A stretch of 64,000 bases of DNA. It comes from Cephalotus follicularis (Eukaryota; Streptophyta; Magnoliopsida; Oxalidales; Cephalotaceae). Made by a program: the position numbers and the translations under genes. Shown piece by piece: positions 1 to 60,525 of the stretch; position 1 is the first letter of the stretch; every line of letters starts with the position of its first letter. A model generated the notes under the pieces. That model did no database searches. It saw only the letters and a program-made list of their open reading frames with translations, and was not told where the DNA came from. The stretch lies in assembly GCA_001972305.1 (NCBI GenBank), contig BDDD01000060.1:210239-274238 (forward strand), written 5' to 3'.

Positions 1-2077
1 CGCCTCTATCATACATAGCGGATCCATAAATCCACCTCATGGGATTTACTCATAACATAGAGAGACACCGTAGACTAATCACACTGCTACGGAAGTGTCA
101 TGTCCCTGTGCCAGGCGTACGACATGCCTATGGTACGCCCCATAGGAGGGTACAATACTCAGTATTTAATCATTTTGAAAACAATGATTTATCAAAATCA
201 ATTTAAAAGCACATTATACATGCTTTTTCGGAACATATTCAAAAATCGTTGACAAAAGATATCATAGCATACATTCATAGTCGAAAATAAATTCATTTAT
301 TTTCCACTATAAAGAGATGATCATAACATATTTCATAACATATCATAGCATAAGAATAAAGTCAGGAACATTCAATTTTGCAAAATGTCAAAACTGACTT
401 TATTTTAAGAACATATCGAAATCATAAAACATAACCGATTTCATAACCGAAGAACATATCATAAAAAAAATAAAACTGATTTGTGTTCGATAAAACCAGA
501 TGGCCAAAGAGCGATAGAAATCCATACATTATGCGTTCACAAAAGTACTTACGAAAAGATTGTTAATTCAAACTCCCCTTTTGAATCACAACAATCTAAA
601 AGACACAAAACCATACATATAAGGGTCTGAGAATCATTAGAGACATAAAACAGATTCATTACAGTGTTTAGGCAGAACCAGATTGATTCAAAGAACAAAC
701 GGATCAAAACAAATGAAAACATGAATTTTCTGAGCAAAACAGCCGACTGTTGGAAGCTTGGCAGTCGACTAATCAACAGGATCAGTTGACTACTCAAAAC
801 AGACTGCAGGCAGTCGACTGTAATAGAGGTCTAGCCGACTGTGCAAAGCAAGGCAGTCGACTGATTCATACAAACAACCGACTACACAAGGCTAGACAGC
901 CGACTGTCAATAAGAACAGCCGACTGTTCTGGACGACAGAACAACAGAACTTAACATTTTCATTGTAGAAACTGTCCAAACATGTATAACATTATACCGG
1001 AGGCTTATACACATATACATATGACATTGTATGGCATTTAGACGGTAGGAAAACACAGATTTTACATGATCCTATGACCAGTGGCTATATTCAAGGAAGA
1101 ACAAAGTGAACTCTAATCACATGCATTCCTATTAGTTCAATTTTATTGTCAACAGCCACTCTAAGTTTCTAAGATCAGATTACAACCCCTTTCATCATGT
1201 TAGCAGTCTTGTTAACAGACTCAGGAACACAATGACAAAACATATAAAGACGGGAACCAAAACCAGCAGAATTTTAGCAGTCTATATGCATATAAAACCA
1301 AATAACAATATGGAACAAACCATCATAGCAAGGATTACTAACCTGTAATGGTTTAACAGACACTGAAAACAGTAGGAAAACACCACAGAACAATGTCAAT
1401 CGGCTATACACGAGAAAAAGAGAAGAGAACAATTACACAGCTCAATGCCTGCCATAGAAAGTATAACCAAAAGAACAACAAAGAATTGAGATTACATAAC
1501 AAACCTGACTTGTGATGAACGAAATAACACAAGAACACAGCAATCCTAGCTTTCAATTTCGGCAGTGAGCAGGCAAAAGGAAACGGATGGCATATCACAG
1601 TGATAATGTCACTCTTAAAACGGGATAGAAAAGAGAGAATTATGGAAGAGATAAGGATATATGGAGACATAATCTGATTGATAAGGTAGAAGAGAGGATT
1701 TTCAGGAGATTGATAAGGAAAGAAGGAAGAAAACGTGTGAAGAGAGATAGAGAGGAAGAGAGAGTTATGGGAGAGGGAAAGAAAAGGAATTAGAAGAATA
1801 AAATAAATAAAAATTTTTTAATAGGGTTTTAAAAAAATAAATAGACTTTGTAAGAAAGGATTTATATAAAAAGAGAAAGAGACATAAGCATAAACATAAA
1901 CCCATCGAAGAAGCATTCCCATACCCACATATCCAAAACTCAGGCTGGTATCAGTCAACCCAAAATACATTGGCCCAAAACGGGGCAAACGGACTTTATA
2001 ACAAAACAATTTGAAAAGCCAAAACACAAACATATAAAAGTCCGTAAAACAAATATACAAATAACCAGGGTATTACA
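1..2077 (-). repeat. 3' LTR of element A (truncated by window edge)
   Basis: Near-identical to 12766-14836. It ends, in element orientation, with TGTAATACCC at 2077. A TATA-like stretch lies on the minus strand at about 1861-1870, roughly 210 bp into the LTR. A cluster of GTCGAC-core palindromes lies at 740-926. The region around 1-160 holds a block also conserved in the LTRs of B and J. Short open frames here are not conserved between copies and are not genes. Confidence 0.95.
740..926. repeat. Palindrome cluster, arm type CAG-CTG (9 sites)
   Basis: Nine 10-mers matching CAG[T/C]CGACTG or one base off start at 740, 762, 783, 811, 832, 854, 875, 897 and 917. CAGTCGACTG is a perfect palindrome; the commonest variant is CAGCCGACTG. 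Spacing is irregular (about 20-29 bp), so this is not a simple tandem repeat. The same set occurs in the other LTR at 13502-13688. It lies about 1 kb downstream of the TATA-like site, so probably in the transcribed leader (inference). Confidence 0.9.
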
Positions 2078-2097
2078 TCCAACCCCCCCCCCCTTTT
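2078..2097 (-). promoter_or_regulatory. Polypurine tract of element A
   Basis: On the minus strand a run of A then eleven G then TTGGA directly abuts the 3' LTR start. Its position fits the plus-strand primer of reverse transcription. The G run is longer than the AAGGAGGGG form in the other elements here. Confidence 0.85.
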
Positions 2098-2136
2098 AAA
2101 AGGACTTTGTCCCAAAATCACAAACATACACATACC

Positions 2137-3345
2137 TTAAGCAAACAAGTGCAGATATCGCTCCCGAATATGCTCCTCCAACTCCCAAGTAGCCTCACGT
2201 ACGGGATGGTTCCTCCATAAAACTTTCACAAAAGGAACGGTCTTGCTACGTGTCACCCGCTCCTGTCGATCCACAATAGCCTCTGCCTCCTCGTCACAAG
2301 ATAGATCCTCCCGATTACTGTCCAGAGGATAGTGAACCACATGCAGGAGATGATACTGATAACCCCTTAGGAAAGATACATGGAACATGCTATGGACGTG
2401 TGCTAACTGCGGAGGCAAAGCCAACAAATATGCAACTGTGCCCACCTTTTCCAGAACTTTGAAAGGTCCTATAAACCGTGGACTCAACTTTCCTTTCAGC
2501 CCAAAACGTCGGACTCCTTTCCAAGGTGAAACTTTTAAGAACACATGTTCAACTACTTTGAACTCCAAGTCCCTCCAATGTCTGTTCGCATAACTCTTCT
2601 GTCGAGATTGAGCTGCCTTCAATCTCTCTCCTGCTACTGCCACTTTTTCAGTAGTGATCTGCACTGGCTCGGGTCCCTCGATAACTCGCTCTCCAACATC
2701 ATCCCAACATGTCAGAGCTTGACACTTCTTCCCATGAAGAGCTTCAAACAGAGCCATATGGATGCTAGCATGCCAACTATTATTGTATGCAAGCTCCACC
2801 AAGCTCAAATACTCATCACAGTTCCCAGTCCACTCCAACGCACAAGACCTGAACATATCCTCTATGGTCTGGATGGTCCTCTCAGTATGCCCATCTATTT
2901 ATGGATGGAAAGCTGTACTGTAACTGAGCCTCGTTCCCCAAGCTTTCTGGAACCCTTTCCAAAACTGCGAAGTGAAACGAGGATCCCTATTTGAAACAAT
3001 GGATATCGGAGTCCCATGGAGTGTCACTATCTCCTGCTGAAACACCTCTGCAAAACGATCCACAGATTAATCCTCTTGGATAGCCAAAAAGTGAGCCGAT
3101 TTAGTCAATCGATCCACTACTACCCAGATAGCATCGTTCCTTCTGAAAGTTCTTGGCACACCCGTAACAAAGTCCATCGAAATGCTTTCCCATTTCCATA
3201 CTGGAACTTCCAAGGGCTGTAACAAACCACTAGCATGCTGGTGTTCAATCTTTACCTGTTGACAGATCAAACACCTTCCAACATACTCTGATCCATCCCT
3301 TTTCATTCCATTCCACCAGAAGTTCTTCTTCAAGTCTCTATACAT
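2137..3345 (-). pseudogene. Element A integrase with chromodomain-like tail, broken
   Basis: The frame opens at 3345 with MYRDLKK, the middle of the integrase zinc-binding region, followed by the CLIC half of the HHCC finger. The catalytic core follows: the first Asp in MDFVTG, the second in SNRD (Asp retained), and the GHTER region with the Glu. In-frame stops fall at about 3064-3066 and in the 2870s. The last 239 codons (2856-2137) hold the GPF/Y-like stretch (FIGPFKVLEKVG) and a tail resembling group II chromodomains, with VKVLW and ATWE-type motifs. The missing N-terminal part coincides with the solo LTR K insertion. The protein is not functional as it stands. Confidence 0.9.
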
Positions 3346-3462
3346 TTTATTGACATTTATGTCTCAATTCCTAATTTTGATGATAACACATTTGCAACTA
3401 ATGAGTTTGTTTTGTGCAAGATAAGCAAGAAGATATACCAGATACAAATCAGTTCAACCAGA

Positions 3463-3778
3463 CAAAGCGGCGACTGTCAAATTGAAAGCGTCAGCTCTTC
3501 TGGGCTTGTGAGTTTGAAGGTGTCAAGAATTAATATGAAAGTGTCGACTACAAAAATTGCACAAAGCGCCAGCTCTCAAATTGAAAGTGGCGACAGTTTC
3601 AGCACAAAGTGTCAGCAGTTTAGTGTACAAAGTATTCAAAGCGCCAGCAGTTAAAATTCAAAGTCTGAAAATAACAAATGATACAAAGCATCAGCATCAC
3701 TAAGAGGCGACAGTTAATCTCAAACTGGCAGCACATGAAGCGTCGACGCTTATATTAAAACCGGCGACGCTTTGATCG
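3463..3778. repeat. Palindrome cluster, arm type AAAGC-GCTTT, in K
   Basis: About a dozen degenerate sites of the form AAAGCG[T/C/G]C[G/A][A/G]C(G)(C)TTT lie between 3463 and 3778. The best are at about 3737 (AAGCGTCGACGCTT) and about 3762 (CGGCGACGCTTTG). Others read AAAGCGCCAGC, AAAGTGTCGAC or AAAGTGGCGAC. Spacing is irregular. The cluster ends about 110 bp upstream of the TATA box. Confidence 0.8.
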
Positions 3779-3886
3779 GGAATACTGTCAGATGATATCT
3801 TATCAACGCACAAATTAAGGCCAAAGTTTCCAAAATTATTTCAACGGCTACAAGACATTACACAACGGCTCTTTCATCAAAAACAG

Positions 3887-3895
3887 TATAAATAG
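3887..3895 (+). promoter_or_regulatory. TATA box of LTR K
   Basis: TATAAATAG follows the palindrome cluster in element orientation and precedes a block shared with the LTR of D. The position fits a U3/R border. This is a sequence-pattern call only. Confidence 0.7.
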
Positions 3896-4320
3896 GGCTC
3901 AAGAACAACCAAGAAAAATCAATCAAGTCATACAGCAATCATAGCATTACTCTGAGTTGTTCTTGTCTTATTTCAAACGATTATTGTGAGCAAATTTAGT
4001 CTATATCAAGCCTTTGAGAGGTGATACAAAAAAGCTATTCATTCTTGTATTTGTTCAAATATTTGAGGGAGGTGAACCCTTGTGTGTGTGATTGAGGTCA
4101 ATCACAACTATTGTATTCGAGGTCGGATACTAGTGGAAACTCAAGTAGATCCTTGAGAAAAGTGGACGTAGGCAAGAGATTAAGCCGAACCACTATAAAA
4201 CTGTTTTTGCATTCTTCTACTCTATCTCTTTATTTTGTTAGTATCATTGTTTGAATATAATTGTTGTTTTTGAATTGTTAGTTTAATTTTTATTTTGGCT
4301 AATTTTTCAAATTCATCATA

Positions 4321-5748
4321 GCAACAAAACCTTTAGAACTCCGAACAAACAGATTCAAGTCCAACAGCTCCATATCGTCTATCAACTACGGCTGAGTAAG
4401 CAAAGCCGCTACACTCCCAGAACTCTTCCGACTAAGTGCATCAGCTACCACGTTTGCTTTACCAGAGTGGTATAGAATATTCATATCATAGTCCTTCAGA
4501 ACCTCCAACCATCACCTATGGCGCATGTTCAACTCCTTCTACGTAAAGATGTACTTGAGACTCTTATGATCGGTAAAGACGTCACAATTTTCTCCGTATA
4601 GATAGTGCCTCCATATCATCAACGCAAACACCACTGCTGCTAACTCGAGATCATATGTAGGATAGTTTACTTCATAAGGCTTCAACTATCTCGAAGCATA
4701 AGCTATCACATGGTCGTGCTACATTAAAACACACCCCAAACCCTTCTTAGAAGAATCACTATAAATCTGGTATCCACCCAACCCAGATGGTAAACAAAGA
4801 ATCGGTACCGACATAAGACCATTCTTCAGTTTCTCGAAGCTTGCTTCTTGCTCTTCATTCCATTCAAACCTAGCTCCCTTTCTCATAAGCTGAGTCAGTG
4901 TTAAGGCTATAGAGGAAAATCCTTCCACAAACTGCCTATAGTATCCAGCCAAACCCAAAAAGCTCCTAACCTCCGTCACTGTGGTAGGTCTCGGCCATTT
5001 AGTAATAGCCTCAACTTTAGTAGGATCCACACAGATACCTTCAGCTGTAACCACATGACCCAAAAATGCCACATGTTCCAACCAGAACTCACATTTTGAA
5101 AACTTCGCGTAAAGCTGATTCTTCCTCAAAATACCCAGCACTATGCGAAGCTATTCTTCATGTTCTTCCTTCGACTTGGAATACACAAGGATGTCATCTA
5201 TGAACACAATCACAAACTGATCCAAGAACTCACAAAACACTCGATTCATCGGATCCATGAAAACTTCCAGTGCATTAGTAAGTCTGAACTGCATCACTAG
5301 AAACTCATAATGCCCATACCGAGTACGGAAATCAGTTTTAGACACATCTTCATCCTTTATCTGAAGCTGATGATATCCCGATCTCAAATCGATCTTAGAG
5401 AAATACCGAGCACTTTGGAGTTGATCAAACAAGTCATCAATCCTAGGCAAAGGGTATTTATTCCGAACAGTAATACGATTCAACTCTTTGTAGTCTATGC
5501 ATAGCCTCATAGACCCATCTTTCTTCTTCACAAAAAGAACCGGAGCAGCCCACGATGAAACACTCGGCCAAATGAAACCCCGATCCAACAGCTCTTGCAA
5601 TTGCTCCTTCAGCTCCTGTAACTCAAGTGATGCCATCCTCTATGGTGCTTTAGATATAGGTGCCACTCCAGAAATGAGCTCAATGGTAAACTCCACTTCC
5701 CGTTGAGGTGGCAAACCCGATAAGTCCTCCGGAAACACATCTGCAAAC
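4321..5748 (-). pseudogene. Element A reverse transcriptase and RNase H, broken
   Basis: Reading down from 5748: the N-terminal RT region (PLELQ-like, here [11 protein letters not shown]), [10 protein letters not shown], and the catalytic box as [10 protein letters not shown] near 5195, with both Asp kept. RNase H follows ([13 protein letters not shown], then DLELAA, then TDHKSL further down) and ends with the typical [10 protein letters not shown] near 4400. A stop after KEEHEE at 5151 separates RT fingers/palm from the thumb (5141-4719). Further stops lie in RNase H (about 4718, 4690 and 4580). RT residues LTNALEVF replace the usual LTNAPxxF. Clearly a decayed copy. Confidence 0.9.
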
Positions 5749-5750
5749 TC

Positions 5751-6698
5751 TCAAACCACAGGATAGTCTTCAAGGCGAGGCTCAACCTTAGAGACATACT
5801 TCACAATAGCTAAGAAACCTTCAGCTCCCTTAGCCACCAACTTCTGAGCCTTCAAACCAGAAATAACCTTCGCTTCTTTTCTCGGTTGTGAACCCTGATA
5901 AATAAAATCAGGTTTATCCACAACCCCAAGTAGAATCCTTCGAGCGTGATAGTTAATCATAGCTCGATGACGATCCAACCAATTCATACCCAAAATCATA
6001 TCGAAGTCATACTTATCAATAGGACGAAGATCCGCATCATGAATCCGATCATCAAAAACAAGATGGCAAGCATAAAAACACTCAGATATCACAACCGATG
6101 TCCCCGTAGGGGTCGAAAGAACCAGAGCTGGATCAAGCATCTGTGAAGGCATTCCAAGATGCCAAACAAAGGACCTTGCTACAACCCAGTAGGTCGATCC
6201 AGTATCATATAAAACATAAGCCCTATGGTTACCAACAAAAATAAAGCCCAAAACAGTACCTGGTGCATTAGCAGCCTGCTGTGTCCTGATAGCAAAAACA
6301 TGACCTCCCACATTGCGCTGTCCAGGATCTGTATTGTTCCCCCTCCTATCCTTCGCACGAGGATAAGGACAATCCTTCACAAAATGCCCCTTTTTACCAT
6401 ATACAAAACAGGCCCCGATGGTCTTATAGCACACTCACACTGGATGTTGTCTACCACAAGTATCACACTTGGCAATCTGAACATCCCAAGCTTCCTATGT
6501 CTGCTTCTGATCATTACCGGGTTGTCGCTACCCCCGGTTATCATTCATCCTTCCTTGTTCGCCATTTCTGTTCTTGCCATGCTTTCCAAAACCTTGCCCC
6601 TGAGAATCTCCCCTATTTCTCTTCTTATCATTTTCATGTCGAGCTGCCTGGAAGTCTAGCCTCTCCAGTTCTATATTCTTTGTTGCGTTTACGATTTC
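5751..6698 (-). pseudogene. Element A gag C-terminus, zinc knuckle and protease
   Basis: The gag sequence resumes here after the D insertion ([17 protein letters not shown], continuing from 11149). The zinc knuckle reads [14 protein letters not shown], with the second Cys changed to Tyr; the same site in B is [14 protein letters not shown]. The aspartic protease has DTG intact (VLYDTGST) and the downstream ILGMNWL motif. The open part (6434-5751) is 227 codons and ends at a stop just before the RT domain; stops also lie upstream of the knuckle. In intact relatives this would be continuous with RT. Confidence 0.9.
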
Positions 6699-7234
6699 AG
6701 AAATGAAAGGACCTATGTGGCAACTCTTAAATTAATAAATATTTGTTTGCGGAATTAACAAATTAATCTATGAACATAAATAAGCACACAAGAACAAGTA
6801 ATACAATAGTAAGTTAAAGAGATAAGGGATAGAGAGTGTGCAAACGATTTATAGTGGTTCGGCAAAATCCGTGCCTACGTCCACTTTCTCAAGAACCCCT
6901 TGAGTTTCCACTAGAATCTAGTAGTAACCTTTGATTTCAGCTTGCGGGTGCAAATCAAACAAAACCACCATACAAGTGATCGACCCCCTTTGATAATCCT
7001 CCTAAGGGTTCACTTCCCTTGATTATCTCACGAAGGTTTCACTCCTCTCTTTTACAATGAAAGATTTAAAGGATTGGTGTTGTTTACAATAAACCTCTTA
7101 AAGATTGGATATGAAAGTGATAGCTAGTTACAAGCTTTTGATGTGAAAGTGTAAAACTCTAGCTTGATGATCTTTTGTAGATGTGCAAGTTTTAGATTGG
7201 ATGTTCAAAATCATTTGATCTTGTTTCTTGGCCT

Positions 7235-7244
7235 CTATATATAG
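7235..7244 (-). promoter_or_regulatory. TATA box in 3' LTR of D
   Basis: CTATATATAG, the same on both strands; element orientation is minus. The identical site lies at 10650-10659 in the 5' LTR. Confidence 0.75.
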
Positions 7245-7355
7245 CTTTCTTCAGTTTATGGCCGTTGTAGAAGTAATATAGCCGTTGGAGAAGTCTTGAA
7301 GGTTGTTGCATAAAAGCCGGCTCTTTAAAACGAATTCTGACATTGTTCTAGCCGT

Positions 7356-7626
7356 CCAAAGCGTCGACGGTGTTGCCTAAAGCATCGACGCTTAGGTTAC
7401 CGTTATGAGTTGATTTTGAATTTTCTCGCTCTGTCGGTCGGCCCTTTGATCTCGGTGTAGACTCTTTGGCATAAAGCGCTGACGCTTTACTCCTAAGCGT
7501 CGCCGCTTTGAGTTCTTCAACTGATTTTGCACGTCACTGGTTTTAACCGCAGATGCACGCTTTTTAGGCGTTGACGCCTTGGACCAAACCGCTGACGCTT
7601 TGATTCCAACCGTCGGCGCTTTGTCC
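7356..7626. repeat. Palindrome cluster, arm type AAAGC-GCTTT, in D 3' LTR
   Basis: About ten sites, including AAAGCGTCGACGGTG (about 7358), AAAGCATCGACGCTTA (about 7380), AAAGCGCTGACGCTTT (about 7472), AAGCGTCGCCGCTTT and GGCGTTGACGCC. All are variants of the 16-bp palindrome AAAGCGTCGACGCTTT. The cluster lies about 110-390 bp upstream of the TATA box, reading on the minus strand. Confidence 0.85.
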
Positions 7627-7733
7627 TGTTTCTGCACTTCTTTATTGTGTTTATCTTTTCTTGCACATAAAGTAATAAAGTTAAATGCAAATTTATAATC
7701 ATTAAAACTTAGGATTGAGACTAAAAGTCAACA

Positions 7734-8361
7734 ATCTCCCCATTTTTTATGATTACAAAAATTTGCTTCATTATGGAAAAATCTATAACATTTCAAAGCA
7801 AAAGTACAATTGAAAGATAAGACTTTCTTTAGATACCAACTTAAAAATTTTAGATAAATTCCCCCTTAATATGACATCTAGTTTTCTTTCATTTTCAAAA
7901 TAGTGATTTATGCAAATAGTCTTATTTAGCTTCACATTTACCATAAACTCCCCATTTAAGACATTTTTCATTAATAGCACATTTTCATATCTAGCTCCCC
8001 CTTAGCATAAGCTATCAATTTTTCCTAAAGCATAAAGCATTCTCCCCCTTTTTGTTAGCAGCAAAAAGATTATGTCAAAGATTTGATACCAAATAAACAA
8101 TTTTAACGGGATACCAAATAAAAAACAAAAAAATAAAAGAATATCAATAGTAATATAGTCCTTTGAAAGTTAAAATATCGTATCAAAACAAAATTAAAGA
8201 TTTGAGAGATACCAATTGAAAGTTAAAGATTAAATCAATGAGACCATTATTTTATTATCTAACATAAAACGATACCTCCCCCTCAACAAAAGCTTTCTCA
8301 CATAAACTTGTGTACTTGAACATCTTGAAATTAACTCCAAGTACACATACAAAAACAAAGT
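7734..8361 (-). promoter_or_regulatory. Multiple polypurine-tract region of D
   Basis: At least six minus-strand purine tracts of the type AAGGGGGAG(A/C/T) lie here, at about 7734-7743 (next to the LTR), 7860, 7948, 7996, 8041 and 8274. Only the one abutting the LTR need act as plus-strand primer. Repeated tracts in this position are a known Sirevirus feature. I see no coding sequence in this stretch. Confidence 0.8.
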
Positions 8362-10062
8362 TTAAGCTTTTTGTACCCATTTGAACTTGGGTCCTTGCAA
8401 GTTAGTCGCACACGTTCCTTTCGGAACCCAAATCTTTCTAGTTTTACCAAAACAAAGATTATTTCTAAAAATGCAAGAGGTAGATACATGTCCTATTCTA
8501 CCATAATAATTGCAACAAAATTGAGGCTCATTTTTCTTAACAAAGAAATTTTTAAAATGTTTGACATTTTTCATTTCTTCATAGCCAAGACCGGCTTTGT
8601 CAAACACACACCTTTGAAGACCTAAAAGATTATCCAATTTAGCACTACTATTTGAAAAGGTAGAAAAAGATTTCTTTAAAGCATCAATCTCAATTTTTAG
8701 CTTTTCATTTTCTTCCATTGAATCGATTGATAATTTTGAAGACACATTTAAAATGTCAATCTCATTCATATAAAAACTATTCTTACTTTTTAGAGATTCA
8801 ATTTCATTTATGTGTTTGCTATTTTCACTCTTTAGAATTTCCAATTCTTTAGACATAGAAATAGCATTTTTCTTTAAAGACTTATTCTTCGAGCATACAT
8901 TTTCATATTCATTAAACAAGTTCTCATATGCATTTTGCAATTCATCGAAAGTAAAGTTTACCTCATTTTCACTTTCATCTTCACTTGTATCTTCTTCCAA
9001 AGCCATGAGAGCAAGGTTTACAACCTTTTCATCACATTCTTCTTCTTCGGAGCTTGAGGGATCGCTATAATCCCAAGTTGCTACCATTGCTTTCTTCTTC
9101 TTGGAATGCTCATTCTTCTTGAATTGTTCTTTGTTGAATCGTTCTTTCTTCTTAAGATTCGGGCACTCATTTTTGAAATGACCCGTATTTTTGAATTCAA
9201 AGCAAGTAAGTTCTTCCTTTTTGCTTGATTCTTCATCTTGAGAGAATTTCTTTTTGAAGGCCTTTTTGCCTTTTTGACTCTTGAGGAACTTTTTGAATTG
9301 TTTGGAGATAAGAATAATATCATCGTCTTCATCACTCTCACTTTCTTCCCTTAAGGCTCTTAAGGCAATTGACTTCTTCTTCTTGACTTCCACATGCTCA
9401 TGATTCTTCATTGTAGTCTCATGCGTCATCAAAGAACCTAGGAGTTGTTCGAGTGGAAGAGTGGAGAGGTCCTTAGCTTCCTCAATTGTCGTTACCTTTG
9501 GAGTCCAACTCTTCGGCAAGCACCTTAAGATTTTTCTAACAAGTTCTTGGTTAGAATATGATTTGCCAAGATTCTTAAAAGAATTAATAATGGTAGTAAA
9601 GCGAGTAAACATATCACTAATACTCTCATTATCATACATCAAAAATAGTTCATATTCATGTACAAGCATACTAATTTTTGATTCCTTTACTTGATTCGTG
9701 CCGTCATATGTAACTTCTAATAAATCCCACATTTCTTTAGCCATGTCACATGAAGAAATGCGATTAAACTCATTAGGACCAACGGCACAAAACAAAACAT
9801 GTTTAGCTTTAGAATTTAATTGAAGCATTCTAAAATCATTATCGTTATACTCATTTTCGGGTTTAGGAGAGACTACTCCTTCTATTGTTCTTGTGGGCAT
9901 TCTAGGACCATTTATAACAATATGCCATAATTGATAGTCTAAGGATTGTAAAAATATTGTCATCCTAGTCTTCCAAAAACTATAGTTATTTCCGTAAAAA
10001 AATGGAGATCTAGTTATGGAGGAACCTTCTAATCCTACGTTTAGATTCATTTGGGTTGGCAT
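8362..10062 (-). CDS. gag: Copia (Sirevirus-type) Gag, 566 aa, open
   Basis: Gag is the capsid precursor that forms the virus-like particle and packages element RNA. The N-terminus (FFYGNNYSFWKTRM, about residues 22-35) is the DUF4219-like start of plant copia gags. It is followed by the UBN2-like capsid region with LVRKILRCLPKSW and the IEEAKDL...LLGSLMTHE stretch. A Lys/Glu-rich, coiled-coil-like C-terminal half follows. Two CCHC knuckles are recognisable at about residues 287-300 and 515-528, but each has lost its second Cys (CFEF... and CNYY...). RNA binding may therefore be impaired, or the lineage may have changed it. The start Met fits the family N-terminus and lies about 40 bp from the primer site. 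No stop interrupts the frame, which is unusual in this window. Confidence 0.92.
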   Translation of the reverse strand: MPTQMNLNVGLEGSSITRSPFFYGNNYSFWKTRMTIFLQSLDYQLWHIVINGPRMPTRTIEGVVSPKPENEYNDNDFRMLQLNSKAKHVLFCAVGPNEFNRISSCDMAKEMWDLLEVTYDGTNQVKESKISMLVHEYELFLMYDNESISDMFTRFTTIINSFKNLGKSYSNQELVRKILRCLPKSWTPKVTTIEEAKDLSTLPLEQLLGSLMTHETTMKNHEHVEVKKKKSIALRALREESESDEDDDIILISKQFKKFLKSQKGKKAFKKKFSQDEESSKKEELTCFEFKNTGHFKNECPNLKKKERFNKEQFKKNEHSKKKKAMVATWDYSDPSSSEEEECDEKVVNLALMALEEDTSEDESENEVNFTFDELQNAYENLFNEYENVCSKNKSLKKNAISMSKELEILKSENSKHINEIESLKSKNSFYMNEIDILNVSSKLSIDSMEENEKLKIEIDALKKSFSTFSNSSAKLDNLLGLQRCVFDKAGLGYEEMKNVKHFKNFFVKKNEPQFCCNYYGRIGHVSTSCIFRNNLCFGKTRKIWVPKGTCATNLQGPKFKWVQKA

Positions 10063-10104
10063 GGATCTTTATATTTATAACAATTAAGAATTATGAAATA
10101 ACCT

Positions 10105-10115
10105 CTCTGATACCA
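10105..10115 (-). promoter_or_regulatory. Primer binding site of D (initiator tRNA-Met)
   Basis: On the minus strand TGGTATCAGAG, complementary to the 3' end of plant initiator tRNA-Met, starts two bases after the 5' LTR. Confidence 0.92.
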
Positions 10116-10649
10116 ATTGAAAGGACCTATGTGGCAACTCTTAAATTAATAAATATTTGTTTGCGGAATTTAGAAATTAATCTATGAACATAAATAAGCA
10201 CACAAGAACAAGTAATACAATAGTAAGTTAAAGAGATAAGGGATAGAGAGTGTGCAAACGATTTATAATGGTTTGGCAAAATCCGTGCCTACGTCCACTT
10301 TCTCAAGAACCCCTTGAGTTTCCACTAGAATCCACTAGTAACCATTGATTTCGGCTTGCGGGTGCAAATCAAAGCAAAACCACCTTACAAGTGATCGACC
10401 CCCTTTGATAATCCTCCTAAGGGTTCATTTCCCTTGATTATCTCACGAAGGTTTCACTCCTCTCTTTTACAATGAAAGATTTAAAGGATTGGTGTTGTTT
10501 ACAATAAACCTCTTAAAGGTTGGATATGAAAGTGATAGCCAGTTACAAGCTTTTGATGTGAAACTGTAAAACTCTAGCTTGATGATCTTTTGTAGATGTG
10601 AAAGTTTTAGCTTGGATATTCAAAATCATTTGATCTTGTTTCTTGGCCT

Positions 10650-10659
10650 CTATATATAG
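10650..10659 (-). promoter_or_regulatory. TATA box in 5' LTR of D
   Basis: CTATATATAG, in the driving LTR of this element. Transcription would run leftwards through the gag frame. Confidence 0.75.
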
Positions 10660-10770
10660 CTTTCTTCAGTTTATGGCCGTTGTAGAAGTAATATAGCCGT
10701 TGGAGAAGTCTTGAAGGTTGTTGCATAAAAGTCGGCTCTTTAAAACGAATTCTGACATTGTTCCAGCTGT

Positions 10771-11040
10771 CCAAAGCGTCGACGGTGTTGCCTAAAGCAT
10801 CGGCGCTTAGGTTACCGTTATGAGTTGATTTTGAATTTTCTCGCTCTGTCTGTCAGTGCTTTGATCTCGGTGTCGACTCTTTGGCATAAAGCGTTGACGC
10901 TTTACTCCTAAGCGTCGCCGCTTTGAGTTCTTCAACTGATTTTGCACGTCACTAGTTTTAACCGTAGATGCGCGCTTTTTAGGCGTTGACGCCTTGGACC
11001 AAACCGCTGACGCTTTGATTCCAATCGTCGGCGCTTTGTC
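10771..11040. repeat. Palindrome cluster in D 5' LTR
   Basis: Same set as 7356-7626, with a few substitutions, mostly at the CpG of the core (for example GCTGAC against GTTGAC). It sits immediately upstream of the TATA box. Confidence 0.85.
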
Positions 11041-11148
11041 CTGTTTCTGCACTTCTTTATTTTGTTTATCTTTTCTTGCACAGAAAGTAATAAAGTTAAA
11101 TGCAAATTTGTAATCATTAAAACTTAGGATTGAGACTAAAAGTCAACA

Positions 11149-11865
11149 AGAAACATCAGCAAACCTAGCATTATTCAGTTTACCCCTAAACTGATAGTGC
11201 AGCTTCCATTTGAATTTCTCAGCCTGCTCTAATGCTGTCCCCGCCGCGGACCCAGCAAAACCAGCAAGCCTAGTGAAACAGGTCAAAAACTCCGTGACCG
11301 ATTCTCCATCCTTCTGTCTTGTATTTATGAACTGCCTGGCATAAGCCGCCCTATCAGTAGCAGAAAAATACTGCTTATAGAAGACTTCGCAAAACTCTGA
11401 CCAAGTCAAAGCATCAATATAGTTACCACCCTTAGCCAATCCCAGAGTCTTCCACCACTTATGAGCATCACCCTCAAGCTTGTAAGCAGCTAATCTCACC
11501 TTCTGCTCGTCACCACAACAAAGCAGATCGAAGATCTTGTCCATATGCGCAATCCAATGCTCAACCTTCATAGGAGTCACGGCTGAGCTGAAAGACTACG
11601 GCCTCTATTTCTGGAACCGCTCAAGCTAGATATAAACAAGTGTGTCAATCCTGTCCCCAGTTTCCCTTCCCAATTGAACATCATCTGGAGCATTCTCCTC
11701 AGCAACCGGCTCCCTTAGGCATTGTTCCTGATTCTGCTGATCCATCACACAACGTACCTCTTGAGCGACTGCCTGACATACCAACTCTTCCATAGAAGGC
11801 CCATTTCTGACCTCCTGAGCCTCAGCTAGTGCAGTCCTCTGAGAACCGTTCCTTGTTCGTACCAT
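11149..11865 (-). pseudogene. Element A gag N-terminus and capsid, broken
   Basis: Begins MVRTRNGSQRTALAEAQEVRN at 11865, like the gag start in B. The chromovirus retrotrans_gag capsid region follows (WIAHMDKIF, YKLEGDAHKWW, FCEVFYKQYF, VTEFLTCFTRLAGF). Stops at 11626-11628 and about 11583-11595 fall where B has Trp/Leu or Gln codons (two look like CAG to TAG). The frame is cut at 11149 by element D and resumes at 6703. Confidence 0.92.
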
Positions 11866-12026
11866 CTACGAAAAGACGCTCAAAACATGAAACATCATAA
11901 AGAAACAGAAATAGAAACCAAAATAGAAAACATAACAAACTGATCGTAATAGAAAAGCTTAACCCAGAGTCTACCTAATCTCATAGGTCAAACCTAGTTA
12001 GGTCTTCTAAGGAAACAAACCTATTT

Positions 12027-12037
12027 CTCTGATACCA
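12027..12037 (-). promoter_or_regulatory. Primer binding site of element A
   Basis: On the minus strand TGGTATCAGAG, initiator tRNA-Met type, five bases inside the 5' LTR end at 12043. Confidence 0.93.
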
Positions 12038-12042
12038 CAATC

Positions 12043-14836
12043 TGTAACACCCCCAGACTGCGAGATTCACATGTCATAATATAGATCCTAACATAACATA
12101 GCATAACTTAACTGAACATAAGCATAACTTTATTAAGAAAAAAACGCAGCGGTCAAAACAAATTCTGTAAACTGATGAAAACTTAAAACTTATCATATTC
12201 AGAAAACTTAACATATTTCAAAAGTCAATTATTAGAAATGTAAACCATAAGTAACTTATTATTCATGACCAACTCTAACAGAAAAAATAACAGGATCACA
12301 CTCCTAAGGATTCTTGACATAAAGGTGGTCATCTCTCATTCACACTTTCCCTACCGCTCCTGATAACTTGCCGCATGGAAACAAAAACGCGGTTGAGCAA
12401 ACCTTAGTACGGATAAAGCATATAAAACAGTAACAATAATTTAAAAGCGGTAAGATTTCAATAAAACTCGTAACATAAATCTTAAGCAGTAAATCAGTTA
12501 AATGTTCATTTTCGAACTTCATAAAACCCAATTTCATAACTTTCAAAACATATACGAAATATTTCAAAACCACAAATTTCATAATATCATACTAAGCCAC
12601 ATAACATATCACATATCGAAAATATATATGGCAAGGGAGGCGCTAATTCCACATGCCCATTAGAATTGAAGTGTACGACACTACACGAGTCAATTCTCAT
12701 ATCATATCATATCACATATTGCATAACTCCATACGTATGTCATGTCCTAGAATCGATTCATACGCCTTTATCATAAATAGCGGATCCATAAATCCACCTC
12801 ATGGGATTTATTCATAACATAGAGAGACACCGTAGACTAATCACACTGCTACGGAAGTGTCATGTCCCTGTGCCAGGCCTACGACATGCCTATGGTACGC
12901 CCCATAGGAGGGTACAATACTCAGTATTTAATCATTTTGAAAACAATGATTTATCAAAATCAATTTAAAAGCACATTATACATGCTTTTTCGGAACATAT
13001 TCAAAAATCGTTGACAAAAGATATCATAGCATACATTCATAGTCGAAAATCAATTCATTTATTTTCCACTATAAAGAGATGATCATAACATATTTCATAA
13101 CATATCATAGCATAAGAATAAAGTCAGGAACATTCAATTTTGCAAAATGTCAAAACTGACTTTATTTTTAGAACATATCGAAATCATAAAACATAACCGA
13201 TTTCATAACCGAAGAACATATCATAAAAAAAATAAAACTGATTTGTGTTCGATAAAACCAGATGGCCAAAGAGCGATAGAAATCCATACATTATGCGTTC
13301 ACAAAAGTACTTACGAAAAGATTGTTAATTCAAACTCCCCTTTTGAATCACAACAATCTAAAAGACACAAAACCATACATATAAGGGTCTGAGAATCATT
13401 AGAGACATAAAACAGATTCATTACAGTGTTTAGGTAGAACCAGATTGATTCAAAGAACAAACAGATCAAAACAAATGAAAACATAAATTTTCTGGGCAAA
13501 ACAGCCGACTGTTGGAAGCTTGGCAATCGACTAATCAACAGGATCAGTTGACTACTCAAAACAGACTGCAGGCAGTCGACTGTGATAGAGGTCTAGCCGA
13601 CTGTGCAAACCAAGGTAGTCGACTGATTCATACAAACAGCCGACTACACAAGGCTAGATAGCCGACTGTCAATAAGAATAGCCGACTATTCTGGATGACA
13701 AAACAGCAAAACTTAACATTTTCAATGCAGAAACTATCCAAACATGTATAACATTATAGCAAAGGCTTATACATAGATACATATGACATTGTATGGCATT
13801 TAGAGGATAGGAAAACACATAATTTACATGATCCTATGACCAGTGGCTATATTCAAGGAAGAATAAAGTGAACTCTAATCACATGCATTCCTATTAGTTC
13901 AATTTTACTGTCAACAGCCACTCTCAGTTTCTAAGACAAGATTACAACTCCTTTCATGATGCTAACAGGTTTGCTCACAGACTCAGGAACAGAATGACAA
14001 AACATATAAAGACAGGAACCAAAACCAGCAGAACTTTAGCAACCTATATGCATATAAAACCAAATAACAATATGGAACAAACCATCACAACAGGGATTAC
14101 TAACCTGTAATTGTTTAACAGACACTGAAAATAGCAAGAAAATACCATAGAACAATGTCAATCGACTATACACAGGAACAAAAGAGAAGAGAACAATTAC
14201 ACAGCTCAATGCCTACCGCGGAAAGTATAACCTAAAGAACAACAAAGAATTGAGATTACATAACAAACCTGACTTGTGGTGAATTAAATAACACAAGAAC
14301 ACAGCAATCCTAGCTTTTATTTTCGGCAGTAAGCAGGCAAAAGGAAACAGATGGCATATCACAGTGATAATGTCACTCTTAAAACGGGAAAGAAAAGAGA
14401 GAATTGTTGAAGAGATAAGGTACGAAGACATAATCTGATTGATAAGGTAGAATAGAGGATTTTTAGGATATTGATAAGGAAAGAAGGAAGAAAACGTATG
14501 AAGAGATAGAGAGGAAGAGAGAGTTATGGGAGAGGGAAAGAAAAGGAATTAGAAGAATAAAAGAAATAAAATTGTTTTAATAGGGTTTTAAAATAATAAA
14601 TAGAATTTGTAAGAGAGGATTTATATAAAAAGAAAAAGAGACATAAGCATAAACATAAACCCATCTAAGAAGCATTCCCATACCCACATATCCAAAACTC
14701 AGGCTGGTATCAGTCAGCCCAAAACACATAGGCCCAAAACGGGGCAAACGGACTTTATAAAAAAACCATTTAAAAAGCCCAAACACAAATAGATAAAAGT
14801 CCGTAAAACACATATATGAATAACCAGGGTATTACA
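12043..14836 (-). repeat. 5' LTR of element A (2794 bp)
   Basis: Element orientation: TGTAATACCC at 14836 to GGGTGTTACA at 12043. It contains the palindrome cluster 13502-13688. It also contains a block at about 12350-12910 that is shared, in reverse complement, with B (17226-17810) and directly with J (56625-57490). Confidence 0.95.
13502..13688. repeat. Palindrome cluster in A 5' LTR
   Basis: Nine sites corresponding one-to-one to those at 740-926. Several differ by single substitutions, such as CAATCGACTA for CAGTCGACTA. In element orientation the asymmetric variant reads CAGTCGGCTG, as in B. Confidence 0.88.
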
Positions 14837-16554: not shown

Positions 16555-16718
16555 CAGTCGGCTGTCTCTGTGGACAGTCGGCTGGAATGGTTGTGTAGTC
16601 GACTGGAAGGATGAACACAGTCGACTGCCTACATTTTGGGTTGTGTAGTCGACTGGACCATATGAACAGTCGACTGCCAAGCCTCCCCAGTCGACTGGAT
16701 CCCTATTTTAGTCGACTG
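16555..16718. repeat. Palindrome cluster, arm type CAG-CTG, in B (8 sites)
   Basis: 10-mers at 16555, 16575, 16596, 16618, 16646, 16667, 16688 and 16709. The first two read CAGTCGGCTG; the others read [C/T]AGTCGACTG, five or more being the exact palindrome core. Spacing is 20-28 bp and irregular. Same orientation sense as in element A. Confidence 0.9.
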
Positions 16719-17810: not shown

Positions 17811-17994
17811 CGGGGGAAAGTGTGTGTAACGCCCGGTATTTTTCCTGGATGTAATATTTAGATTTATGATGTAATGATTAAACTTGATTTAATGAGAATG
17901 TTGAGTTTTGGACTCAAAGGATGCTTGCAAACCCTAATTTTGGACTTGGAAATGGAATAAGAATGTTAAAGCTTAAACGGCACTATTTTTGGCC

Positions 17995-18132
17995 AAAGAC
18001 ATCGACGTCTTTGGTAAAGATGTCGACGCCTTTGGGGTGCGAGGTGCACGTTGACCTTGAGAGAAAGCATCGACATCCTCTGTCAAAAAATGGAAAATAC
18101 ATCGACGTCCAAGGAAAGACGTCGACGCCTTT
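17995..18132. repeat. Palindrome cluster, arm type AAAGAC-GTCTTT, first in C
   Basis: Five 18-bp sites at 17995 (AAAGACATCGACGTCTTT), 18016, 18064, 18095 and 18115. The consensus AAAGACGTCGACGTCTTT is a perfect palindrome. Individual copies differ at one to five positions. Confidence 0.9.
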
Positions 18133-18890: not shown

Positions 18891-19152
18891 AAAGACATCG
18901 ACTCCTTTTAGAATAACATCGACGTCTTTCAGTTTTTGCCTTATTACTGATTGAAAGGGATCGACGTCTTTGGGAAGACATCGATGCCATTATATTATAC
19001 ACTGTCATTTTGAGGATTCCAGTCCTTGAACGTCGACGTGTGAGGAACAGACATCGACGTCTTCTGAAGAAGAACGCGCTGACACTGAGACTTGGACATC
19101 GACGCCTGACGCGAAAGACATCGACACCTTTGGGAAAGATGTCGACGTCTTT
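18891..19152. repeat. Second palindrome cluster in C 5' LTR
   Basis: About nine sites between 18891 and 19152, with the same AAAGAC[A/G]TCGACG(T/C)CTTT consensus (for example 18912, 18954 and 19135). Spacing is irregular. The cluster is conserved in the 3' LTR at 28084-28346. Confidence 0.9.
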
Positions 19153-27428: not shown

Positions 27429-27566
27429 AAAGACATCGACGTCTTTGGTAAAGACGTCGACGCCTTTGAGGTGCGAGGTGCACGTTGACCTTGAGAGAAA
27501 GCATCGACATCCTCTATCAAAAAATGGAAAAGACATCGACGTCCAAGGAAAGACGTTGACGCCTTT
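27429..27566. repeat. Palindrome cluster, first in C 3' LTR
   Basis: Counterpart of 17995-18132. The site at 27450 reads AAAGACGTCGACGCCTTT, closer to the perfect palindrome than its 5' partner. Confidence 0.88.
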
Positions 27567-28083: not shown

Positions 28084-28346
28084 AAAAGACATCGACTCCT
28101 TTTAGAATAACATCGACGTCTTTCAGTTTTTTCCTTATTACTGATTGAAAGGGATCGACGTCTTTGGGAAGACATCGACGCCATTATATTATACACTATC
28201 GTTTTGAGGATTCCAGTCCTTGAACGTCGACGTGTGAGGAACGGACATCGACGTCTTCTGAAGAAGAACGCGCTGACACTGAGACTCGGACATCGACGCC
28301 TGACGCGAAAGACATGGACGCCTTTGGGAAAGACGTCGACGTATTT
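28084..28346. repeat. Palindrome cluster, second in C 3' LTR
   Basis: Counterpart of 18891-19152. The last site (28329) is AAAGACGTCGACGTATTT. Confidence 0.88.
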
Positions 28347-32375: not shown

Positions 32376-33068
32376 TGTAACGCCCGGAAATTTCATGTAT
32401 TGTAATTTCACAATGTAATGTACTTTATTATGGGATCAATAAAATGATGGAATTTTTTTTCCTAATTTGATGATGTTTTCCCGAACTATGATGATGTTGA
32501 TGTTAAACCGATTATGTACTTAGAAGTGTGAGTACTTGGTCTGTACACTGGAGGCAGTCGACTGGCATGTAAGACCAGCCGACTGGATGGCTGCGTATGG
32601 GAGCAGTCGACTGGTGGGATGAACCAGGCGACTGGCCAACTATCGAGCCACCTGGCAACGAACTGCCAGGCGAGCAGCCGGCTGATGGGTGTGGACAGCC
32701 GACTGGATCGTGCAATGTTATGTTGCATGTGGCAGAAATCACATGCTACAACTGGAAGATGGAAGTGGATGCCATCTATGCTTCATGTAGCTAAAGGAAA
32801 GGATAAAGGGGACACCTGTGGATCATGCAAACTTCATGGGGCAGAGAAATTAGACCTGTGAGTGTGTGCATGCATGTGAATTTATATAAACTTTGTGGGT
32901 ATCACGTAGTATGGGATGCGTGATACATATTTAAATTCAGCTTATTTCGTGTTATTGCTTCCGCTACTGAAGATTTTGTTTATACGTTTTATCGCATGAG
33001 CTGAATTATGTTGTCTTGATTGCCTTACCGCTTTAATGTTGCCCTCTTGGAAAAAATGGGGTGTGACA
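32376..33068 (+). repeat. 5' LTR of F (693 bp, internally deleted)
   Basis: TGTAACGCCCGG to GGTGTGACA. It matches both ends of the 3' LTR, but at about 32880-32925 it replaces the 3' LTR segment from about 38295 to 39205 with a short unrelated stretch. The palindrome cluster at 32555-32705 is kept; the second cluster is lost. Confidence 0.93.
32555..32705. repeat. Palindrome cluster, arm type CAG-CTG, in F 5' LTR
   Basis: Six sites at 32555, 32576, 32604, 32625, 32675 and 32696: CAGTCGACTG or the variants CAGCCGACTG, CAGGCGACTG and CAGCCGGCTG. In element orientation the asymmetric form is CAGCCGACTG, opposite to A and B. Confidence 0.88.
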
Positions 33069-37743: not shown

Positions 37744-37775
37744 TCTCGTTGAATTTCGAGGATGAAATTATTTTG

Positions 37776-37967: not shown

Positions 37968-38118
37968 CAGTCGACTGGCACGTAAGACCAGCCGACTGGA
38001 TGGCTGCGTATGGGAGCAGCCAACTGGTGGGATGAACCAGGCGACTGGCCAACCGTCGAGCCACCTGGCAACGAACTGCCAGGCTAGCAGCCGGCTGCTG
38101 GGTGTGGACAGCCGACTG
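37968..38118. repeat. Palindrome cluster, first in F 3' LTR
   Basis: Six sites matching those at 32555-32705; one has CAGCCAACTG, a CpG change. Confidence 0.88.
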
Positions 38119-38970: not shown

Positions 38971-39164
38971 CAGCCGACTGTTTAAGTAAAACAGTCGACT
39001 ACTCAATCATCCAGCCGACTATCAAGTAAGAACAGTAGACTGTGCATGCGTTTTTGCCCACAACAGTCGACTGTCGAAGGAAGACAGCCGACTACTGATT
39101 ACTCGTGTTGAACAAGTCGACTGACTCAAGGATCCAGCCGACTGTTATGGAAAACAGTCGACTG
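38971..39164. repeat. Palindrome cluster, second in F 3' LTR (9 sites)
   Basis: Sites at 38971, 38992, 39012, 39033, 39064, 39085, 39114, 39135 and 39155, all CAG[T/C]CGACT[G/A] or one off. Absent from the 5' LTR, which lost this part. Confidence 0.9.
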
Positions 39165-52098: not shown

Positions 52099-52367
52099 TT
52101 GAAAGCGTCGATCTAAAAGGTTAAGAGTTGACAAAACTGTCTAAAGCGCCGACAGTTTTATTTAAAGAGTCGACGCTTTGGGTAGCAGTCGATGTCCTAA
52201 TTTTAAACGTCGACGCGTTGAAGATTAATGTGTCAGTTGACTTGGACGAAGACTTAAAGCGTCGACGCTTTGTAAGAAAGCGTCAACGCTTTAGTCGGGA
52301 TAGAGGTGAAAAATGCAGGAAAAAGGCTGTGACCGTCGACGCTGAGATATAAAGAGTCGACGCTTTG
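52099..52367. repeat. Palindrome cluster, arm type AAAGC-GCTTT, in I
   Basis: Sites include AAAGCGCCGACAGTTT (52143), AAAGAGTCGACGCTTT (52164), the perfect 16-bp palindrome AAAGCGTCGACGCTTT (52256), AAAGCGTCAACGCTTT (52277) and AAAGAGTCGACGCTTT (52351). Same arm type as copia elements D and K, although I is gypsy. Confidence 0.9.
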
Positions 52368-59200: not shown

Positions 59201-59793
59201 CGATCTGCTTTTCCGACGTCGTCAAGGGTCGAGGCCGGTCGGGTTCGCTTCCTCTCGTCGCCAGGATGCCGAATATGTGACTGGATTGTCATGACGATCA
59301 CTGGAGAGGGAGAAACGATGCCAAACAGTTCCGGGAGAAAGAAGTCATCGCGCACGCCGGTGGAGACGTCGGCCGGTGCAGGGGTTGGGACCGGTGGACT
59401 CAGGACACTGCGGGGGTTCGAACGGTGCCCTTCGCCGGTGCCAAATCGGTACCAACGCCGGTGACCGAGGGTGAGAGGTGAGAGAGAATGGGAGAGAGAG
59501 AGAGATGGTCGGGAGAGAGAGGGAGAGAGAGAGAGTGTGGGAGAGAAATACAAGTTTAACACAAAATTGGGTTTTTGACTTCTAAAATGCTGAAAATGGT
59601 TTTTTTTTTTAACACATAAGTAAAAAGCCAAAAAATTATTTTATCAATCATGGACATAATATCAAAACCCACTGGCTAAGACTAAAACCCGCTTAGCCAA
59701 GCCAAAAGCAAAACAAACCGAAAACAAAATCGGCAGCCCATACGAAACATATCGAAAAGCCCAAAAATCTATACGGAAAAACGGGATATTACA
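56287..59793 (-). mobile_element. Element J: solo LTR (minus, 3507 bp)
   Basis: Flanks AATCA (56282-56286) and ACTCA (59794-59798). In minus orientation TGTAATATCCCG...GGGGGTGTTACA. It shares with A and B the conserved LTR blocks (56625-56700; 57240-57490) but little else, and has no GTCGAC cluster. Near its start in element orientation a CT-rich tract (59470-59545) is followed by a GC-rich leader-like stretch (59030-59465) whose long open frames on both strands are unlikely to be genes. Confidence 0.85.
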
Positions 59794-60048
59794 ACTCATA
59801 AGTTGAACAAAGAAGGCAAGAAACACGTATATATACATTAGCCTAATCAGGCTGATCAAAAATGCTAAACTACCATTATGGTATCCATGGGGTTCACAAT
59901 CTCCATACGTATACCATCCATTGACGTCATAGTCCTCTTAGTGTGAGCAAAGTCTGAGACCCTATGGGTCTTTAATCCTAAAGCCCATATCTTAGGACTT
60001 AGTATTATGAGAGGGTTTCACTTATTCTGCCTTTTGCCTTTGGACGTC

Positions 60049-60148
60049 GGTATGCTCGGTAGCCTTAGGGATAGGTCTGCTTGGCATTCAATAGCACAGG
60101 TCTACTCGGCAACCTTAAGGACAGGTCTGCTCGGTATTCAATAGTGCA
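60049..60148. repeat. Four tandem 25-bp units in H
   Basis: Units at 60049, 60074, 60099 and 60124, of type GGTCTGCTCGGTATTCAATA + GTGCA. Units 1 and 3 resemble each other (AGCCTTAGGGATA, AACCTTAAGGACA), as do 2 and 4, so the real period may be 50 bp. Confidence 0.9.
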
Positions 60149-60219
60149 GGTCTAACCTTATTGTCGTTTAGGATTGAAACCCATGCAAGACCAATCCATT
60201 TTGGGTGAAACAGTGGGTT

Positions 60220-60525
60220 TAGGTGTCGACGCTGCTTTACGCATCAGTTGTTGCAATGCTTAAGGCGTTGACGTTAAGCGCTATTCTGCCTTGTTGCGTT
60301 TAACGTTATGCACTGGCGTGATCATCCATTTCCTTAGGTGTTAACAAGTTCTATGAATCGCGTTAACGCGTTGTGCTATCAAGTTATGCATAAACGCTAT
60401 GAACTGACGCGTTGTGCTGATCAGTGTACAGAATCTCGAAGAACACATATCGCGCCGACTCACTACTCTCAAAGTGTCAACTGATCACTACAAGGCTTCG
60501 ACGCCATTATTCGACGCATTGACCT
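60220..60525. repeat. Degenerate GTCGAC-type cluster in H
   Basis: GGTGTCGACGCTGCTTT (about 60222), AAGGCGTTGACGTTAAG (about 60263), AAGGCTTCGACGCC (about 60491) and TTCGACGCATTGACC (about 60509). Looser than in the other elements; arms are closest to the AAAGC-GCTTT type. Confidence 0.6.

What the first reader, a model, noticed from the sequence alone, without database searches (positions are those of the whole stretch)
740..60525. One palindrome core (GTCGAC) forms clusters in LTRs of both gypsy and copia elements
Seen: clusters of 5-12 irregularly spaced short palindromes in the LTRs of A, B, C, D, F, I and K, and loosely in H. All centre on [G/A]TCGAC. Three arm types occur: CAG/CTG (10 bp), AAAGAC/GTCTTT (18 bp), AAAGC/GCTTT (16 bp). 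Known: Sirevirus LTRs have been reported to carry repeated palindromic motifs. Inferred: the same core in unrelated superfamilies points to a common host factor, an RNA-dimerisation role (retroviral dimerisation sites are palindromic loops), or exchange of LTR segments. The sites are not tandem repeats, so slippage alone does not explain them.
Basis: partly seen in the sequence, partly recalled or inferred. Interest (0 to 1): 0.8.

Follow-up and report, generated by a model that had tools for sequence, protein, structure and literature searches.

The report
Helically phased motif arrays in LTRs
Several unrelated families of retrotransposons in a carnivorous pitcher plant carry the same kind of switch-like DNA sites in their control regions, set about two turns of the DNA helix apart, as if a host protein had been recruited to turn them on.

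Summary
The clusters are real. The host is Cephalotus follicularis. CAGTCGACTG occurs at 197,377 places in its 1.58 Gb assembly; the reversed control at 939.

Two motifs share the ladder: M1 CAG[T/C]CGACTG and M2 AAAGRC[A/G]TCGACGYCTTT. Arrays lie in LTRs of chromovirus-like gypsy elements and of a copia family in which only gag was recognised. In the copia LTRs examined they sit upstream of the TATA box; related copia LTRs carry M1 or M2.

Perfect palindromy is not what is kept: one-sided variants outnumber symmetric double variants (M1 177,392 v 7,846; M2 57,216 v 12,903; doubles about 0.2 of independence), and central CpG-decay forms are rare. This argues against RNA dimerisation and for a DNA-binding protein needing one intact YCGAC. 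GTCGAC and RYCGAC are catalogued CRT/DRE (CBF) elements. The binder is inferred, not shown.

Nearest known: Sirevirus repeated motifs, and CRT/DRE sites in other LTRs. Verdict: new variant of a known kind, unusual in scale, phasing and spread across superfamilies.

The parts
742..924 (-). M1 array in one LTR (1-2077) of a gypsy element read on the minus strand; 8 RYCGAC-type sites, gaps 22,49,21,22,21,22,20
13504..13686 (-). Same array in the other LTR (12763-14836); about 0.95 kb downstream, in the element's sense, of a TATA-like TTTATATAAA at 14620-14629
16557..16716 (+). M1 array, 8 sites, gaps 20,21,22,28,21,21,21; probably a solo or partial LTR, orientation inferred from similarity to the LTR at 1-2077
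18001..18126 (+). M2 array 1 in left LTR (17825-20461, interrupted) of a gypsy element
18897..19146 (+). M2 array 2 in the same left LTR
27435..27560 (+). M2 array 1 in the right LTR (27259-28900); it did not meet the array rule and is not among the 31 arrays
28091..28340 (+). M2 array 2 in the right LTR
32555..32705 (+). M1 sites (CAGTCGACTG, CAGCCGACTG, CAGCCGGCTG) in the left LTR of a gypsy element, upstream of TTTATATAAA at 32881-32890
37968..38099 (+). M1 sites in the right LTR (37789-38295) of the same element
38973..39162 (.). M1 array, 8 sites, gaps 21,20,52,21,29,21,20; LTR membership not confirmed
52107..52361 (.). M2-like array (AAAGC/GCTTT arms), 8 sites; near a 223-bp repeat and gypsy RT remains, LTR limits unclear
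10731..11037 (-). Weak M2-like array in an LTR (10115-11149) of a copia element with only gag recognised, upstream of TATA CTATATATAG at 10650-10659
7363..7622 (-). The corresponding weak array in the partner LTR (6701-7734; TATA 7235-7244); limits approximate

Best explanation
The arrays are enhancer modules of the LTRs. Each RYCGAC-containing site is bound by a sequence-specific host DNA-binding protein, with the CBF/DREB (AP2) type as the best candidate, and sites are kept two helical turns apart, or about 28-31 bp at a junction, so that neighbouring proteins lie on related faces of the DNA and act together on the promoter. Different gypsy and copia families gained or exchanged such modules, and families that had them multiplied. 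Shown: enrichment, fixed spacing, two motif alphabets, presence in LTRs of elements of both superfamilies (copia by gag only), position upstream of TATA in the copia LTRs examined, tolerance of one-sided variants. Inferred: protein binding, cooperativity, activation, identity of the binder, selection as the cause of the spread.
For: Spacing: 174,792 pairs at 19-22 bp v 3,117 at 23-26 bp genome-wide; local adjacent spacings 137 of 303 (those of 6-130 bp) at 19-22 against a mean of 22.2 (maximum 36) in 1000 jitter controls; best period between 6 and 40 bp is 10.3 bp in 253 pair distances on contig C1. Same step for the 10-bp M1 (48 pairs at 19-22, none at 14-18 or 23-27) and the 18-bp M2 (55 v 2 and 0), and for both motifs within one array (L006). 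Variation: M1 T-to-C at position 2 (gives GCCGAC) 177,392 sites v 21,361 for the CpG-decay form CAGTTGACTG; M2 ATCGAC form 57,216 v 1,052 for CpG decay. Symmetric double variants, which lose RYCGAC on both strands, are about 0.2 of the number expected if the halves varied independently. Position: L001 11 of 11 and L009 22 of 22 sites (two LTRs) upstream of TATA, window copia LTRs 9 of 11. Between related arrays the 6-bp core is 92.6% identical, spacers 71.6%, surroundings 77.3%. A New PLACE scan in a published table names GTCGAC CRTDREHVCBF2 (core CRT/DRE motif) and RYCGAC CBFHV (dehydration-responsive element) (PMC9138379, passages). DREB1D sites are associated with plant LTRs (PMC11656987, passages), maize TEs tied to cold, heat and salt response are enriched in CBF/DREB sites (PMC4287451, passages), and the alfalfa element MCIRE has a CCGAC-type element in its LTRs (as told in PMC5059998, passage).
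Against: No binding, expression or methylation data. In the gypsy LTR at 12763-14836 the array is about 0.95 kb downstream of the TATA-like box, and no TATA could be placed with confidence in the gypsy LTR at 27259-28900. A period of 7.1 bp fits the C1 distances nearly as well as 10.3 (0.59 v 0.65), the junction of 28-31 bp is not a whole number of turns, and the comb blurs beyond about 65 bp. The four bases of arm on each side are no better conserved between related arrays (76.5%) than the surroundings (77.3%). M1 varies at position 2 and M2 at position 1, which suggests two binders or another protein class; conserved arms make dyads wider than a single AP2 domain needs (recalled). The double variants are reduced, not absent. 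CCGAC-type and AAAG motifs are common entries of such catalogues, so the match is weak evidence. Footprint identity was measured from intact sites and is biased upwards.
Confidence: 0.6

Rival explanations
1. The arrays are by-products of local duplication and LTR recombination: short segments with a 21-bp step duplicate, spread between families by template switching, and have no function.
For: Spacers within an array are somewhat more alike than between arrays (0.39 v 0.29; 0.27 expected); period 20-21 hits of 1.9-2.5 copies by TRF at 16543, 17995, 19113, 27429, 28289 and 28307; M1 and M2 replace each other in homologous copia LTRs.
Against: Cores stay while spacers turn over (biased as noted); two different motifs use the same step; spacers in the genome-wide listing are diverse; central CpGs do not decay as neutral repeats should.
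Confidence: 0.15
2. Anti-silencing target: a transposon-encoded protein binds the arrays and relieves methylation, as VANC proteins of VANDAL elements do (recalled, not read here).
For: Clustered short motifs in non-coding parts and family-wise motif alphabets.
Against: The same core and step occur in gypsy and in a copia family; of 20 window ORFs scanned with Pfam (of 26 of at least 150 aa listed), 16 show only ordinary gag, zinc-knuckle, protease, RT, RNase H, integrase, SH3 or chromo matches and 4 have none.
Confidence: 0.1
3. Host repressor or silencing recruitment sites: the arrays are recognised by a host factor that keeps the elements off.
For: Abundance of the motif and retention of CpG (and CHG in M1) contexts.
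Against: Elements should not keep sites that silence them, yet sites persist in elements whose LTR pairs are about 95-99% identical and sit where activators would sit in copia LTRs (inference).
Confidence: 0.08
4. RNA function: palindromes act as dimerisation or packaging hairpins in the genomic RNA.
For: Sites are self-complementary; in the gypsy at 1-14836 the array would lie in transcribed sequence if the TATA-like box is the promoter.
Against: Symmetric doubles are 23 times rarer than one-sided variants in M1 (7,846 v 177,392) and 4 times in M2 (12,903 v 57,216); same step for motifs of different length; arrays upstream of TATA in the copia LTRs.
Confidence: 0.04

Closest known systems
Repeated motifs (RMs) of Sirevirus LTRs (PMC2829016; passages, section 9)
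   Same: [quoted passage not shown] PLACE comparison gave mainly stress-related sites; the Vitis RM is CGGTCGACCG, with the GTCGAC core
   Different: Published RMs have a CGG-CCG signature (Tnd-1 excepted) and are said to be absent from classic copia elements; here the arms differ, gypsy elements carry them too, and sites keep a fixed step (spacing is not mentioned in the parts read)
CRT/DRE (CBF/DREB) sites in plant TEs: MCIRE of alfalfa (told in PMC5059998, passage), maize TEs (PMC4287451, passages), LTRs of many plants (PMC11656987, passages)
   Same: CCGAC-type sites linked to LTRs and to stress-responsive TEs, gypsy and copia among them
   Different: No arrays with conserved arms and a fixed step are described in the passages read
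Heat-responsive elements of ONSEN and other COPIA LTRs (PMC5059998, passages)
   Same: Clusters of a host activator's site gained by different LTR families, many of them species-specific
   Different: HSF sites, about four to six motifs per cluster in the passages read, copia elements

Membership tests
Sirevirus-type repeated motif | At least eight copies of one palindromic box per element, clustered in the LTR | tested here: inconclusive
   Met in L001 (11), L009 (10 and 12) and the gypsy LTRs at 1-14836 (8, 9) and 17825-28900 (16, 15); not in the gypsy at 32376-38295 (4, 3) or the window copia (6, 5); counts are RYCGAC-type sites per LTR
Sirevirus-type repeated motif | CGG-CCG core signature | tested here: not met
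   Position profiles show CAGYCGRCTG and AAAGRCRTCGAYGYCTTT
Sirevirus-type repeated motif | Position in the upper half of the LTR, upstream of TATA | tested here: inconclusive
   Upstream of TATA in copia L001 and L009 and in the gypsy at 32376; not in the gypsy at 12763-14836
Sirevirus-type repeated motif | Found in Sireviruses only | tested here: not met
   Gypsy elements carry the arrays; whether the copia family is a Sirevirus was not tested
CBF/DREB binding element | Matches RYCGAC (CBFHV) or GTCGAC (CRTDREHVCBF2) | tested here: met
   M1 and M2 cores and their main variants; catalogue names in PMC9138379
CBF/DREB binding element | At least one strand keeps RYCGAC | tested here: inconclusive
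   Doubles that lose it on both strands fall to about 0.2 of expectation but are not absent
CBF/DREB binding element | Bound by a CBF/DREB protein and responsive to cold or drought | not testable with these tools
   No binding or expression data
Retroviral-type RNA dimerisation site | Self-complementarity maintained by compensatory change | tested here: not met
   One-sided variants outnumber symmetric doubles 23-fold (M1) and 4-fold (M2)

The most novel reading that the evidence does not exclude
One plant lineage has a shared regulatory code for its retrotransposons: unrelated gypsy and copia families converged on, or traded, arrays with a two-turn step built from two interchangeable motif alphabets, so that one small protein family reads about one array per 10 kb of the genome and could switch much of the mobile genome on together, with hundreds of thousands of decoy or enhancer sites for that protein.
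Probability: 0.4. Interest if true: 0.85.

Novelty: new variant of a known kind. Interest (0 to 1): 0.66.

Why it matters
If a host activator reads these arrays, the genome holds several hundred thousand binding sites for it, spread by retrotransposons of two superfamilies. That would explain co-activation of unrelated elements, give a clear case of LTR enhancers with a shared geometry, and bear on how host genes using the same factor avoid titration. It also extends the Sirevirus motif story, in which a fixed step can now be looked for, to gypsy elements.

Tried and rejected
RNA dimerisation, hairpin or cruciform: disfavoured on counts of one-sided against symmetric double variants. Plain tandem repeats: in the arrays TRF finds only rows of 1.9-2.5 copies with a period of 20-21 bp. 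Simple methylation decay as the source of ATCGAC and GCCGAC: disfavoured, since the central CpG-decay forms are 8-fold (M1) and 54-fold (M2) rarer. Literature: CAGTCGACTG is held by 29 papers, of which 20 were listed; none of the 20 listed titles concerns plant transposons. Cephalotus + retrotransposon + palindrom: none. The Cephalotus genome paper is not held. Searches were listings that gave nothing used here. Comparison with other plant genomes was not possible: no plant DNA collection is on hand. RNA pairing by orientation (G-U test) was looked at by eye only and is not used. A search for CAATCGACTG did not complete.
Full report
Where it is. The window is G000:C60:210239-274238 of a 1.577 Gb, 9746-contig genome. 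Its copia-type gag ORF finds proteins named Cephalotus follicularis, one of them on a contig of 881,643 bases, the length of contig C60. The host is therefore Cephalotus follicularis, order Oxalidales.

Is it there. GTCGAC occurs 38 times in the window against 7.3 (sd 2.6) in 100 dinucleotide shuffles, and 16 palindromes of at least 10 bp are centred on it against 0.49. GTCGAC is in excess in LTR-like stretches and at expectation in six internal regions. In 23 stretches of the genome that I chose by contig number (213,615 non-N bases), words of the motif are among the most over-represented: GTCGAC 118 v 17.4 expected, CGTCGA/TCGACG 212 v 24.6, CGACGC/GCGTCG 133 v 14.3 from an order-1 Markov model. 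Genome-wide, CAGTCGACTG has 197,377 places, its reversed control 939; with up to one mismatch 541,281 v 25,037.

Spacing. Distances between RYCGAC-type sites (all pairs, duplicates removed) peak at 19-22 bp (129 pairs, v 2 at 23-27), with further peaks at 40-43, 48-53, 62-64, 70-73, 91-93 and 113-114 and 2 pairs at 54-59; beyond about 65 bp the comb blurs. Adjacent spacings at 19-22: 137 of 303 (6-130 bp); jitter control mean 22.2, maximum 36 of 1000. Genome-wide: 174,792 GTCGAC pairs at 19-22 bp (control 1,783) v 3,117 at 23-26 (control 383). The best period of 253 distances on contig C1 is 10.3 bp (vector 0.65), but 7.1 bp reaches 0.59, as 21, 28, 49 and 70 are also multiples of 7. Two turns of the helix per step is therefore the natural reading, not a proof. 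Steps are about 21 bp with a junction of about 28-31 bp. The spacers listed are diverse.

Two motifs. An array was defined as at least 4 RYCGAC-type sites with at least 2 gaps of 19-22 bp, so phasing inside the arrays is by construction. By this rule there are 31 arrays: 8 in the window, 2 in loci fetched because they match M1 (L001, L006), 21 in the 23 chosen stretches. They fall into 13 BLAST groups, counted with 600-bp flanks that may hold other elements. For most of the 21 the LTR context was not worked out. Sorted by flanks, 11 are M1 and 20 M2; the profiles are M1 CAG[T/C]CG[A/G]CTG and M2 AAAGRC[G/A]TCGA[C/T]GYCTTT; sites were pre-selected for RYCGAC on either strand, so only the difference between types is unbiased. 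M1 varies at position 2 but hardly at position 1 (A 0.04); M2 at position 1 but hardly at position 2 (C 0.01). The array in L006 mixes both on one ladder.

What the variants say. M1: intact 197,377; one-sided T-to-C 177,392 (control 1,330); central CpG decay 21,361 (control 4,173); symmetric double 7,846 (control 133) against 39,858 if the halves varied independently. M2: intact 12,992; one-sided ATCGAC 57,216; double 12,903 against 62,994; central CpG decay 1,052. Palindromy as such is thus not the conserved property; one intact YCGAC is. Copies within a family are not independent, so these counts are not independent events, and the arms were held fixed in the patterns.

Which elements. The gypsy elements at 1-14836, 17825-28900 and 32376-38295 show RVT_1, RVP_2, Retrotrans_gag and Tf2-1 SH3 matches; a chromo match passes Pfam's cut-off in the first (26.2 v 25.1 bits) and falls below it in the third (23.3); none was seen in the second. 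The element at 6701-11149 has a copia-type gag (PF14223), the only ORF of 150 aa or more in its internal part; its LTRs are 96.6% identical. L009 holds a relative with LTRs at 2703-3851 and 6035-7183 and M2 arrays; L001 holds a third with an M1 array; the LTR parts downstream of the array and the internal parts next to them are alike (83% and 89%). In these copia LTRs the array ends shortly before the TATA box: L001 11 of 11, L009 22 of 22, window 9 of 11 sites upstream (the L001 TATA at 1866-1875 was read by eye, the script's pattern missed it). The copia assignment rests on gag alone.

Conservation. Over 28 alignments between different arrays (at least 100 columns, at most 93% identical, several from copies of one element) the core is 677 of 731 identical, arms 734 of 959, spacers 1455 of 2033, surroundings 3569 of 4615. 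Arms (76.5%) are thus no better kept than surroundings (77.3%). Cores were chosen intact in one member and the partner was array-bearing, which raises their value.

Function. A DNA-binding protein reading RYCGAC, in spaced groups near the promoter, explains most of this. A published table made with New PLACE names GTCGAC CRTDREHVCBF2 and RYCGAC CBFHV (PMC9138379, passages). Independent work finds CBF/DREB sites in LTRs and in stress-responsive TEs (PMC11656987; PMC4287451; MCIRE in PMC5059998; passages only). That barley HvCBF1 and HvCBF2 prefer such sites is recalled beyond the catalogue names. The dyad arms and the type-specific tolerances are not explained by a lone AP2 domain and leave room for another protein.

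Against. One gypsy LTR has the array downstream of its TATA-like box. Two window clusters (38973, 52107) are not shown to lie in LTRs. Spacers within arrays are somewhat alike, so some local duplication has occurred. No experiment is available.

Compared with the known. Sirevirus RMs share number, position, dyad form and, in Vitis, the GTCGAC core. They differ in signature and in being described as Sirevirus-specific. The present case is a new variant: other arms, gypsy as well as copia, a fixed step, and very large scale (21 arrays in 213,615 sampled bases).

Noticed in passing
window 22259-26436: Exact (100%) 2,089-bp tandem duplication inside the gypsy element, length not a multiple of three: recent duplication or assembly artefact.
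   Followed up: no
window 6701-11149; L009 2703-7183; L001: Copia family in which only gag was recognised (PF14223/UBN2); 517 protein hits, and many of the 120 listed are named Cephalotus: possibly a non-autonomous lineage.
   Followed up: partly
window 10672-10709 and 7257-7294; L001 near 1786; L009 near 6545: AACGGCTATA-like box just upstream of TATA in the three copia LTRs; resembles the AACGG core of M-phase MSA elements (recalled).
   Followed up: no
L022 6302-7332: Tandem repeat with a step of about 183-185 bp, neighbouring units about 98-99% identical, likely a satellite.
   Followed up: no
L006 1368-1548: Mixed M1/M2 array about 320 bp after the end of the gag match, perhaps inside the internal region of an element, recalling Sirevirus motif copies before ENV.
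   Followed up: partly
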